Source: Conexibacter sp. (GTDB taxonomy: Bacteria > Actinomycetota > Thermoleophilia > Solirubrobacterales > Solirubrobacteraceae). From it: a DNA stretch of 33,212 bases. Within the stretch, counting starts at the first letter, position 1; every line of letters begins with the position of its first letter. The position numbers were made by a program, and so were the translations under genes. The DNA lies in assembly GCA_025964325.1 (NCBI GenBank), contig JAOPZA010000043.1, positions 1 to 33,212 of the forward strand, written 5' to 3'. The notes beneath the pieces were generated by a model that searched no databases, was not told where the DNA came from, and saw only the letters and a list, made by a program, of their open reading frames with translations. Positions 2,905 through 5,908 of this stretch are shown here, one piece after another.

Positions 2905-3759
2905 GTGGCTGTCTCTACTCCTCGAGAGCCGTTCCACCGACCGTCGCGCCGGGCGTCGCATGCTCGCAAGCGGCCTTCGGAGCACGAGCTCGTGCTGGCC
3001 GCCAAGGAGGGAGCGCCGGGCGCGAGCAGGCAGCTGCTCGACGCGTTCACGCCGCTGATCGCCTCGGTCGCGCGGACCTACCGCGGCTCCGCCGCCGTCG
3101 ACCGCCGCGAGTTGATGCAGGAGGGCTGCGCCGGCCTGTTGACCGCGCTGCGCCGCTACGACCCCGACCGCGGCACGCCCTTCTGGGCCTACGCCTCCTG
3201 GTGGGTGCGCCAAGCGATGCAGCAGCTCGTCGCCGAGCTGACGCAGCCGGTCGTGCTGTCGGATCGCGCACTGCGCCAACTCGCGCACGTGCGCTCGGAG
3301 CGGCGCGCCTACGCCAACGCGCACGGCGCCTGGCCGACGACGAAGCAGCTGGCGTCCGCGACCGACCTGCCGCTCGTGCAGGTCGAGCACCTGCTGGTCG
3401 TCGAGCGCGCACCGCGGGCGCTCGACGAGCCGCGCGACGGCAGCGAGGCGCCGGTCCGCGAGCTGGGCGAGACGCTGACGGATCCGGCCGCCGAGGAGGA
3501 GTACGACCGCGTGCTGACGCGCATCGAGACGGACCGCATGCTGACGCTGCTGGCCGGGGCCGACGCTCGCGGGCGAGCGATCATCCGGGCGCACTACGGC
3601 CTCGACGGACCCGAGCAGACGCTGCGTCAGATCGCCGGCGGACTCGGGATCAGCGCCGAGCGGGTGCGCCAGCTCGAGCAGCAGGTGCTGGAGGAGCTGC
3701 GGGTCGCGGCGGAGACGACGGAGGAGCCGCCGAGCCCGGTCCCGCGTCGCGATGCCTAG
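2905..3759 (+). CDS. Sigma-70 family RNA polymerase sigma factor (regions 2-3-4)
   Basis: A 284-residue sigma factor with three globular regions and no region 1.1. Region 2 is around residues 66-108, with ELMQEGCAGLLTALRRYDPD and the -10 melting segment TPFWAYASWWVRQAM. Region 3 spans roughly 120-175. Region 4 ends with the helix-turn-helix LRQIAGGLGISAERVRQLEQ. The size and three-region layout fit a group 2/3 alternative sigma rather than an ECF factor. GTG at 2905 is the start, with GAAGGGAG (2891-2898) at good distance. No anti-sigma gene is adjacent on its strand. Its stop shares the palindrome CTAG (3756-3759) with the stop of the convergent anti-sigma gene. The promoters it serves cannot be inferred. 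Confidence 0.9.
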   Translation: MAVSTPREPFHRPSRRASHARKRPSEHELVLAAKEGAPGASRQLLDAFTPLIASVARTYRGSAAVDRRELMQEGCAGLLTALRRYDPDRGTPFWAYASWWVRQAMQQLVAELTQPVVLSDRALRQLAHVRSERRAYANAHGAWPTTKQLASATDLPLVQVEHLLVVERAPRALDEPRDGSEAPVRELGETLTDPAAEEEYDRVLTRIETDRMLTLLAGADARGRAIIRAHYGLDGPEQTLRQIAGGLGISAERVRQLEQQVLEELRVAAETTEEPPSPVPRRDA

Positions 3760-4475
3760 GTGACGTTCGCCTGCGCCAGCGGCGCCGAGGTCGGCCGCGG
3801 GCTGCCGCCCGCCGGCTCGCGCGTCACCAGCAGCTGGTCGCCCGGGTGGAGCGGCTGCGGCACGCCGACCGTCGCCGTGCCGTCGCGCGCGAGCACGAAC
3901 ACGCCGCCGGACGTGACGCCGTCGCGAGGGCGACGGACCCATACCTGGTACACGGCGTTCGACGGCAGCGACGGCATGCGCTCGACGTTCAGCCGCCACG
4001 CGCCGCCGTCGCGCACGAGCGTCGCGCCAACGGGGGCATTGGCCGTCGCCCGCACGGGCACGGTCGGGTCGTGGGCGCCGCCGCCGCCGCCCCGCAGCGC
4101 GAAGCCGGCGAAGAAGGCGACCGCCAGCGTCGCGGCGAGCCCGGCGATCGGCGCGGGGCGCCAGAACCACGCGCGCCAGCGGGCCAGCTCGCGCGACGGG
4201 CGCGGCGCGGGGGAGGCGGGCAGGGGCGCCTGGGACTGCGCCGCCTCCGCGTCGACGACGTCCATGATGCTGCGGCGCAGGGATGCGGGCGGCTCGCGTC
4301 GCTCGACCGACAGCGGCAGCAGCTCGACGGCCGGCGCGAGCCGGTGCAGCTCGGCGCGGCAGCGGTCGCAGTGCACGAGGTGACCCTCGAAGGCGGCGGC
4401 CTCGTGCGGATCGAGCGCGCCGAGCGCGAACGCGGCCAGCTCGTCGTCCCAGGGCTGGTGGTCGGAGTCGCTCAC
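3756..4475 (-). CDS. Anti-sigma factor, RskA family, zinc-binding
   Basis: A 239-residue membrane anti-sigma factor. The cytoplasmic N-terminus begins with DELAAFALGALDPHEAAAFE and a ZAS motif H32-x3-C36-x2-C39 that would bind zinc and clamp the sigma factor. One transmembrane helix (about 108-127, APIAGLAATLAVAFFAGFAL) leads to an extracellular RskA domain, with segments such as NAVYQVWVRRPRDG and GGVFVLARDGTATVGV. By family knowledge, release occurs by regulated intramembrane proteolysis or redox change. The start is GTG at 4475. It overlaps the TGA of the upstream sigma gene as GTGA (4472-4475), so the two are translationally coupled and made in linked amounts. It must act on that sigma factor. 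Confidence 0.92.
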   Translation of the reverse strand: MSDSDHQPWDDELAAFALGALDPHEAAAFEGHLVHCDRCRAELHRLAPAVELLPLSVERREPPASLRRSIMDVVDAEAAQSQAPLPASPAPRPSRELARWRAWFWRPAPIAGLAATLAVAFFAGFALRGGGGGAHDPTVPVRATANAPVGATLVRDGGAWRLNVERMPSLPSNAVYQVWVRRPRDGVTSGGVFVLARDGTATVGVPQPLHPGDQLLVTREPAGGSPRPTSAPLAQANVT

Positions 4476-5056
4476 GAGATCACTTCGTCGATGTTCGCGC
4501 GCAGCTTCTCGAGACCGAGTCGCATGCGCCCCTTGATGGTGCCAAGCGGGACGCCGAGCAGGCCAGCGATCTCGCGGTGGGTGAAGCCACTGAAGTAGGC
4601 GAGGGCGAGGACGTGCGCCTGGTCGCGGGGGAGCTCCTGCAGCGCGCCGCGCACGACGCGGGCGTCCTCGCGTCGCAGCGCTTCGACGTCGGTGCGCCCG
4701 GGCGCGGCCTGCGCCTCCATCGCGCCGTCGTCATCGAAGTCGAGCGGGGCGCGCGACGACGCCCGGCGGAGCGCGTCGATCGCGCGGTTGCGGACGATCG
4801 CGAGCACCCACGAGCGGACGCTGCCGCGTGCCGGGCTGTAGCCGCCGCTGGCGCGCCAGAGCGAGACGAACGCCTCCTGCGTCACGTCCTCGGCGACCTG
4901 GCGATCTCCCATGATCCGATGCGCGAGCGAGTAGGCGGGGCCGCTGTGGCGGTCGTAGAGGACCTCGAGCGCTCGAGGATCGTGCGCGCAGACGAGCTCC
5001 ATCAGCTCCTCGTCGGCGAGGCGGTCGACGCTGCGGCGCCTCACCTCGTCGTCCAT
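4472..5056 (-). CDS. ECF sigma factor, SigK-like
   Basis: A 194-residue two-domain sigma factor. Region 2 covers residues 30-100 (ALEVLYDRHSGPAYSLAHRI, then DVTQEAFVSLWR and SWVLAIVRNRAIDALRR). Region 4 covers about 140-190 (LPRDQAHVLALAYFSGFTHR, then EIAGLLGVPLGTIKGRMR). This is the SigK/ECF19 pattern, which pairs with RskA anti-sigma factors, as here. The frame stays open far upstream, and I chose ATG at 5056 because MDDEV leads into the conserved region. No strong Shine-Dalgarno precedes it. The promoter region holds one arm of a mirrored motif shared with the divergent ferritin-like gene, suggesting the factor transcribes both its own operon and that gene. Confidence 0.9.
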   Translation of the reverse strand: MDDEVRRRSVDRLADEELMELVCAHDPRALEVLYDRHSGPAYSLAHRIMGDRQVAEDVTQEAFVSLWRASGGYSPARGSVRSWVLAIVRNRAIDALRRASSRAPLDFDDDGAMEAQAAPGRTDVEALRREDARVVRGALQELPRDQAHVLALAYFSGFTHREIAGLLGVPLGTIKGRMRLGLEKLRANIDEVIS

Positions 5057-5082: not shown

Positions 5083-5118
5083 TTCGCAGGCGGTCGGCGA
5101 ATGGATCAATCGAGCCGC
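5083..5118 (-). promoter_or_regulatory. Promoter-like arm A, upstream of the sigK-like operon
   Basis: Read on the minus strand this arm contains GCGGCTCG, then 2 bases, TGATCCAT, 4 bases, CGACCG, 2 bases and TGCGAA. The last block lies 26 bases before the sigma start codon. The same blocks in the same order occur on the plus strand at 5146-5180. It is probably the autoregulated ECF promoter or a twin operator. The blocks are visible and the role is inference. Confidence 0.55.
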
Positions 5119-5145
5119 GCCGGCGCGGCCGGACGCGAGCTCGCG

Positions 5146-5180
5146 GCGGCTCGGTGATCCATCGCGCGACCGGGTGCGAA
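5146..5180 (+). promoter_or_regulatory. Promoter-like arm B, upstream of the ferritin-like gene
   Basis: A plus-strand copy of arm A: GCGGCTCG, 1 base, TGATCCAT, 4 bases, CGACCG, 2 bases, TGCGAA. From TGATCCAT onward the spacing is identical. TGCGAA ends 38 bases before the ferritin-like ATG, leaving space for the AAGGAG ribosome site. Confidence 0.55.
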
Positions 5181-5218: not shown

Positions 5219-5908
5219 ATGCCGCATGCACTCACGGACCTCATCTCGATCGAGACGCTCGATCGCGACGGCGCGCTGCGCGAGACGGCCCACGCCGTCG
5301 AGGGCGACACGCGCGCAGGCCTGTTCCGCAAGGCCGGCATCGCCGGCGGCTCGCTGCTCGCCGGCGGCGTGCTGATGGGCGGGCTGCCGGCCCTCGCGTC
5401 GGCCGCGCCGTCGAAGAAGCAGGACGTCGCGATCCTCAACTACGCCCTCACGCTCGAGTACCTCGAGGCCGCGTTCTACCGGCAGGCCGTCCAGCAGGGC
5501 AGGTTCAAGGGCGAGGTCGGCAGCTTCGCGAAGCTCGTGCACGCGCACGAGGAGGCGCACGTGCGGGCGATCAAGGGCGTCCTCGGCCGGGCCGCTGTCG
5601 CGTCGCCGAAGTTCGACTTCGCCGACACGACGGCGAACGCGGCGAAGTTCAAGGCGACCTCGTTCGCGCTCGAGAACGCCGGCGTCGCCGCCTACTCGGG
5701 CCAGGCGACGAACATCAAGCAGACGGCCGTCGTCAGAGCCGCCGTCTCGATCCTCACGATCGAGGCGCGTCACGCCGCCGCGATCGCGGTGCTGCTCGGC
5801 CACGTCACGGGCAAGAGCGGCATCACGCCGAACGGCGCCTTCGACGTCGCGAGCGACATGAAGACGATCCTCGGCGCCGTCAGAGCCACGGGCTTCATCA
5901 CCGGCTGA
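5219..5908 (+). CDS. Exported ferritin-like domain protein
   Basis: A 229-residue protein with a leader of about 32 residues, then a signal-like segment (TRAGLFRKAGIAGG, LLAGGVLMGGLPALASAAP) that may be Tat-type, although the twin-arginine is imperfect. The mature part is a four-helix ferritin-like fold (Ferritin_2 type): ALTLEYLEAAFYRQAV (helix 1, Glu ligand), VHAHEEAHVRAI (helix 2, E-x-x-H), and TIEARHAAAIAVLLG (last helix, E-x-x-H). These Glu/His pairs are the expected di-metal ligands. Family members may store or oxidise iron or protect against peroxide, but the activity is unproven. The ATG has a strong Shine-Dalgarno (GGAAGGAG at about 5204-5211). The gene is divergent from the sigK-like/rskA operon and shares a mirrored promoter motif with it, so it is a likely regulon member. 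Confidence 0.85.
   Translation: MPHALTDLISIETLDRDGALRETAHAVEGDTRAGLFRKAGIAGGSLLAGGVLMGGLPALASAAPSKKQDVAILNYALTLEYLEAAFYRQAVQQGRFKGEVGSFAKLVHAHEEAHVRAIKGVLGRAAVASPKFDFADTTANAAKFKATSFALENAGVAAYSGQATNIKQTAVVRAAVSILTIEARHAAAIAVLLGHVTGKSGITPNGAFDVASDMKTILGAVRATGFITG

What the first reader, a model, noticed from the sequence alone, without database searches (positions are those of the whole stretch)
5083..5180. Mirror-image promoter motif between the SigK-like operon and a ferritin-like gene
Minus-strand 5083-5118 and plus-strand 5146-5180 share GCGGCTCG, TGATCCAT, CGACCG and TGCGAA in the same order. The spacing is identical from TGATCCAT onward, and both point outward from a 27-base centre. The last block is 26 and 38 bases before the two start codons. 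The plainest reading is a pair of divergent promoters used by the same ECF factor, placing the ferritin-like protein in its regulon.
Basis: partly seen in the sequence, partly recalled or inferred. Interest (0 to 1): 0.65.

Follow-up and report, generated by a model that had tools for sequence, protein, structure and literature searches.

The report
Twin divergent ECF sigma-factor promoters
Two back-to-back copies of one on-switch let a bacterial stress regulator turn on both its own genes and a neighbouring gene for an exported ferritin-like protein of a family linked to drought tolerance; the switch type is known, but this use of it appears not to have been described.

Summary
The two 26-base arms (minus 5083-5108, plus 5155-5180) share 20 of 26 bases.

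Relatives reduce the functional part to TGATCCR-N15-CGHA (H = A, C or T). It precedes 29 of 37 orthologous sigma genes, always with 16 bases between TGATCC and CG, and 0 of 24 paralogous ECF genes. The distance between the two sites varies from 24 to 110 bp in relatives, so this is not one fixed operator.

The same -35, spacing and -10 occur in published RpoE/ChrR-type promoters of Shewanella and Pseudomonas.

The regulon reaches further. An unlinked second Ferritin_2 gene carries the site (11 of 13 loci); a tatAC operon is tentative. The ferritin-like protein belongs to PF13668, a desiccation-related family with metabolite-phosphatase activity shown in two members.

New member of a known kind; no transcription data were available.

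The parts
5103..5108 (-). -35 element TGATCC of the promoter for sigma-rskA
   Evidence: sequence; TGATCC in sense orientation before 33 of 37 orthologous sigma genes
5083..5086 (-). -10 element CGAA of the sigma-rskA promoter, 16 bases after the -35
   Evidence: spacer of exactly 16 in 29 of 29 sites although 15-17 was allowed
5155..5160 (+). -35 element TGATCC of the promoter for the ferritin-like gene
   Evidence: sequence; TGATCC on the ferritin side in all five Conexibacter genomes that hold the linked pair
5177..5180 (+). -10 element CGAA of the ferritin-like gene's promoter
   Evidence: CGCA in G001, G002 and G003; not matched in G005
4472..5056 (-). ECF sigma factor, 194 aa
   Evidence: Sigma70_r2 and r4_2; nearest solved chains R. 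sphaeroides RpoE/SigE 2q1z and M. tuberculosis SigK 4nqw
3756..4475 (-). anti-sigma factor: zf-HC2 plus RskA_C, overlapping the sigma gene end
   Evidence: PF10099 and PF13490 above cut-off; NF052375 112.5 bits against cut-off 100
5219..5908 (+). Ferritin_2 (PF13668) protein with a signal-peptide-like N-terminus
   Evidence: PF13668 E 1.1e-39; profile match to tardigrade RvY_06210 E 7.7e-7
5119..5145 (.). 27-base G+C-rich centre between the two outward promoters
   Evidence: length not conserved (TGATCC cores 24-110 bp apart in relatives)

Best explanation
The two arms are separate, outward-facing ECF promoters, each with -35 TGATCC, a 16-base spacer and -10 CGAA. The left one drives the sigma-rskA operon, so the sigma factor activates its own genes; the right one drives the ferritin-like gene. 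When the membrane-bound RskA-like anti-sigma factor releases the sigma factor, both are switched on together. In this genome the same holoenzyme probably also transcribes an unlinked second Ferritin_2 gene and perhaps tatAC. Shown: the sequences, their conservation, position and orientation. Inferred: which sigma factor uses them, the transcription starts, the release mechanism and the inducing signal.
For: Motif before 29 of 37 orthologous sigma genes, 0 of 24 paralogous ECF genes, about 0.1 expected in shuffles. Spacer exactly 16 in 29 of 29 sigma sites; purine after TGATCC in all 52 N16 sites though not required. Divergent pair with TGATCC on both sides in five Conexibacter genomes; sigma-side TGATCC 52 nt before the aligned start in four of them, while the gap between sites varies. 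The same element before 29 of 88 ferritin clusters in genomes with the sigma factor and 1 of 15 without, and before 11 of 13 loci of the second Ferritin_2 family. Of 41 strict TGATCC-N14-TGCGAA matches in 146 genomes, 12 lie within 3 kb of a sigma or ferritin gene. Same -35, spacing and -10 class in promoters with mapped starts or ChIP peaks in Shewanella and P. syringae.
Against: No transcription start, ChIP or mutant data exist here. The association with sigma-factor presence is not significant on its own (29/88 against 1/15, Fisher p = 0.06). Most ferritin clusters outside Conexibacter lack the site (59 of 88 in sigma-bearing genomes). 8 of 37 orthologous sigma genes lack the exact site; two of these, L036 and L198, have the sigma gene closely downstream of ferritin genes. 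The G001 sigma site ends CGAT and the linked G005 ferritin site has no matching -10. G102 has the second ferritin with a perfect site but no sigma hit.
Confidence: 0.88

Rival explanations
1. The sites are promoters but are read by a different ECF factor of the same genome.
For: The genome has 17 sigma-like matches; G102 carries a perfect site before its second ferritin without a detected orthologue of this sigma factor.
Against: The element is at the adjacent sigma gene's own promoter in 29 of 37 orthologues and at none of 24 paralogues, the usual mark of autoregulation.
Confidence: 0.08
2. The mirror pair is one operator: two inverted half-sites bound by a repressor or dimeric activator.
For: Inverted symmetry and 20 of 26 matching bases.
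Against: The distance between TGATCC cores is 46, 92, 36, 24 and 36 bp in five Conexibacter genomes and 61 and 110 bp elsewhere, which fits no fixed operator. The element occurs singly before unlinked genes, and the layout is that of known ECF promoters.
Confidence: 0.03
3. A chance inverted repeat in G+C-rich DNA.
For: The arm similarity alone exceeds shuffles only slightly (20 against a maximum of 19 in 200).
Against: Conservation of both sites in relatives and genome-wide uniqueness.
Confidence: 0.01

Closest known systems
RpoE/ChrR-type (group ECF11) promoters: Shewanella RpoE2 (PMC4336711), P. syringae PSPTO_1043 (PMC5507510); passages read
   Same: -35 TGATCC, 16-base spacer, -10 CGTA; site at the sigma gene's own promoter; the R. 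sphaeroides RpoE chain is the best solved relative of the sigma factor
   Different: the anti-sigma here has RskA_C, not a ChrR match above cut-off; targets are Ferritin_2 proteins; the -10 here is CGAA
SigK-RskA of Mycobacterium tuberculosis (group ECF19; PMC7509140, passages read)
   Same: sigma and RskA_C-type anti-sigma in one operon; SigK 4nqw is the second-best solved relative
   Different: sigma scores 137 bits against the NCBIfam SigK cut-off of 226; lacks the SigK cysteine pair; different targets. The SigK promoter CCATCC/CCGAAT is recalled, not found in the held papers
Ferritin_2 / desiccation-related family: tardigrade RvFeMP-1, Deinococcus DRB0118 (PMC11616004, abstract and passages read)
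   Same: PF13668; profile E 7.7e-7 to RvY_06210; RvY_06210 also tops the fold search
   Different: no IgG-like domain in the 229-aa protein; RvFeMP-1 Asp135 aligns with an invariant Gly155; phosphatase activity untested here

Membership tests
TGATCC...CGTA class of ECF promoter (RpoE/ChrR type) | -35 TGATCC | tested here: met
   both arms
TGATCC...CGTA class of ECF promoter (RpoE/ChrR type) | 16 bases between TGATCC and the -10 CG | tested here: met
   16 in both arms and in 29 of 29 orthologous sigma-side sites; also 16 in the published sites printed (my count)
TGATCC...CGTA class of ECF promoter (RpoE/ChrR type) | -10 CGTA | tested here: inconclusive
   window has CGAA twice; the clade has CGTA in 18, CGAA in 10 and CGCA in 1 of 29 sigma-side sites
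TGATCC...CGTA class of ECF promoter (RpoE/ChrR type) | transcription starts just downstream and depends on the sigma factor | not testable with these tools
   needs RNA data
SigK (ECF19) sigma factors | NCBIfam SigK model NF007228 above cut-off | tested here: not met
   137.2 bits against 226
SigK (ECF19) sigma factors | cysteine pair (133 and 183 in SigK; conserved in 94% of ECF18 and 56% of ECF19, PMC7509140) | tested here: not met
   the only cysteine is C23 (alignment)
SigK (ECF19) sigma factors | assignment by ECF group models | not testable with these tools
   no ECF classification models held
RskA-type anti-sigma factors | RskA_C domain next to an ECF gene | tested here: met
   PF10099 55.4 bits against cut-off 29.4
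Ferritin_2 (PF13668) | Pfam gathering score | tested here: met
   136.2 bits against 24.7
Ferritin_2 metabolite phosphatases | dinuclear metal ligands of RvFeMP-1 | tested here: inconclusive
   E80, E111, H114, E152 and E182 are invariant in 17 sequences and align with ligand positions (D162 replaced by Glu), but Gly155 stands at Asp135 (mapping is mine)

The most novel reading that the evidence does not exclude
In Solirubrobacterales an RskA-controlled ECF factor runs a dedicated export-and-protection regulon: two families of exported Ferritin_2 proteins of the desiccation-related type plus, in some lineages, a TatAC translocase to export them. This would be the first transcriptional regulator assigned to bacterial PF13668 proteins, and the divergent promoter pair in this window is its simplest form.
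Probability: 0.4. Interest if true: 0.65.

Novelty: new member of a known kind. Interest (0 to 1): 0.45.

Why it matters
It gives a testable promoter code for an ECF factor in Thermoleophilia, a class where I found no ECF regulon described in my searches. It also ties that factor to PF13668 proteins, whose members are linked to desiccation and UV tolerance in tardigrades and Deinococcus (PMC11616004). How bacteria switch these genes on can now be tested with a short, exact motif.

Tried and rejected
A single palindromic operator was rejected because the gap between the two sites varies from 24 to 110 bp in relatives. CGACCG and GCGGCTCG as functional parts were rejected because neither is kept in the closest species, G001; why this genome has CGACCG in both spacers is unexplained. 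A general tatA link was not upheld: 3 of 29 tatA/tatC regions carry a site, so tatAC stays tentative, with sites before tatA in G000 and, with a C after TGATCC, in G003.

Genome-wide counts of the relaxed motif are not a clean regulon: 18 matches in the own genome against 1 for the reversed control, and many lie inside long open frames. The reversed control is not matched for codon bias. Co-occurrence of sigma and ferritin genes is significant by Fisher test (53 of 146 genomes have both, p = 1.4e-6) but ignores relatedness. Among 71 more distant sigma relatives (L042-L113; 72 loci, one not usable) only 1 has the sense site, so the code is specific to this clade and not to ECF factors at large.

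The AlphaFold model of the ferritin-like protein is of low confidence overall (mean pLDDT 61.9), and its fold matches have E of 3.6e-3 or worse; they are supporting evidence only.

Paper searches for the SigK promoter sequence found nothing usable, and the ECF reclassification paper is not held. Searches that found no paper on this system.

Rows dropped before counts: one sigma region and one tatA/tatC region as duplicates or too short, one ferritin region of 190 bases, and one ferritin region off its contig end.

Full report
WHAT IS THERE. The window lies in a 4.34 Mb draft genome. Its sigma factor matches Conexibacter (class Thermoleophilia) best among named genomes, at 78% identity. An ECF sigma gene (4472-5056, minus) and an RskA-like anti-sigma gene (3756-4475, minus) face away from a Ferritin_2 gene (5219-5908, plus). 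They are the only two matches in the genome with up to 3 mismatches. Taken alone, the mirror similarity is modest: 20 of 26 bases, against at most 19 in 200 shuffles.

WHAT PART OF IT MATTERS. Four other genomes of the genus (G001, G002, G003, G005) have the same divergent pair, with TGATCC on both sides. The shared part is TGATCC, a purine, 15 bases, then CG-A/T/C-A. CGACCG and GCGGCTCG are absent from the relatives. Upstream of orthologous sigma genes the element is present in 29 of 37 distinct regions (38 loci given). The spacing from TGATCC to CG is 16 in all 29, although 15 to 17 was allowed. Shuffles gave 0.09 on average, and 24 paralogous ECF genes of the genus gave none. The letter after TGATCC is a purine in all 52 N16 sites (29 sigma, 23 ferritin), though this was not required. 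The eight sigma misses are L120, L179, L182, L185, L186, L198, L036 and L029. Of these, L120 (G001) has TGATCC and the right spacing but ends CGAT.

WHY PROMOTERS AND NOT ONE OPERATOR. In the five Conexibacter genomes the TGATCC cores are 46, 92, 36, 24 and 36 bp apart, and 61 and 110 bp apart in more distant divergent loci (its last two rows of eight are the same sequence pair, L041 and G124). Each site keeps its place relative to its own gene: 52 nt before the aligned sigma start in G000, G001, G002 and G003, and 64 to 70 nt before the ferritin start in all five. The element also occurs singly before unlinked genes. Published promoters with the same -35, the same 16-base spacer (my count on the printed sequences) and -10 CGTA are those of Shewanella RpoE2, where starts were mapped (PMC4336711, passages read), and P. 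syringae PSPTO_1043, from ChIP-seq (PMC5507510, passages read). The best solved relative of the sigma factor is R. sphaeroides RpoE (E 8.1e-24), then SigK (E 2.6e-21), which fits.

THE REGULON IN THIS GENOME. The relaxed pattern gives 18 matches. Placed before genes are: the sigma gene; the linked ferritin gene; the only other Ferritin_2-like gene that the linked protein finds in this genome, on contig C249, with the site ending 36 bases before its ATG; and a tatA-tatC operon on C131, with the site ending about 21 bases before tatA. Pfam confirms Ferritin_2, TatA and TatC. The remaining 14 matches were not tied to this regulon; several lie in long open frames.

TEST IN RELATIVES. The second Ferritin_2 family was searched in 146 genomes; 12 genomes and 13 loci were found. 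11 of 13 loci carry the exact element (one of them carries two), against 0.02 expected by shuffling. The misses are L365 and L370. For the first family, 29 of 88 ferritin clusters in sigma-bearing genomes carry it against 1 of 15 in genomes without a sigma hit (p = 0.06). Among Conexibacter clusters in that table it is 8 of 9; the G005 linked gene, which was not in the table, would be a second miss. Of 41 strict matches in 146 genomes, 12 lie within 3 kb of a sigma or ferritin place; by my arithmetic about 0.1 would be expected. tatA is weak: 3 of 29. However, 13 genomes have a listed tatC within 10 kb of a listed sigma or ferritin gene (the tatC list was truncated), and G116 has a strict site before a TatA-like gene downstream of its sigma-rskA pair.

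THE PRODUCT. The N-terminus resembles a signal peptide with an invariant arginine (R32) in 17 sequences. It lacks the twin arginine of classical Tat signals, whereas the second ferritin has NRRQFI. The profile of 17 homologues finds tardigrade RvY_06210 (E 7.7e-7) and, not significantly (E 0.18), the N-terminus of deferrochelatase/peroxidase chains, which I recall as Tat substrates. RvY_06210 is a ferritin-like metabolite phosphatase; its relatives include Deinococcus DRB0118, needed for desiccation survival (PMC11616004, abstract and passages read).

OUTSIDE THE GROUP. Of 71 more distant sigma relatives only one, L045 from Acidimicrobiaceae, has the element. There too it is a mirror pair: one copy before the sigma gene, the other before a divergent gene for a Lipoprotein_15 (PF03640) protein. 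The architecture recurs with a different target.

VERDICT. It is an ordinary kind of regulation with an interesting, apparently undescribed target set. Which sigma factor uses the sites, and what induces it, remain inferences.

Noticed in passing
L235 1480-1535 (own genome C249:3199-3224): Same promoter element before the own genome's second, unlinked Ferritin_2 gene, which has a twin-arginine signal (NRRQFI).
   Followed up: yes
L224 1480-1560 (own genome C131:9569-9594): Same element about 21 bases before tatA of a tatA-tatC operon; present in only 3 of 29 relatives' regions.
   Followed up: partly
L045 3818-3974: Independent mirror pair of the same promoter type in an Acidimicrobiaceae genome, between an ECF sigma gene and a secreted Lipoprotein_15 gene.
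   Followed up: partly
G124, G129, G134, G137 and G145 (one search lists 13 genomes in all): tatC copies lie close to the sigma or ferritin genes, suggesting a dedicated Tat translocase in some lineages.
   Followed up: partly
window 2905-3759: A sigma-70 family gene with regions 2 and 4 (region 3 below cut-off), nearest to RpoD/SigB-type models, ends convergently against the rskA gene.
   Followed up: no
L226 and L290, base 1501: Identical 26-base element in G000 and G001 about 50-80 bases before a conserved membrane-protein gene; possible further regulon member or shared descent.
   Followed up: no
window 5095-5090 (minus) and 5167-5172 (plus): CGACCG is shared by both spacers in this genome only; not conserved and unexplained.
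   Followed up: partly
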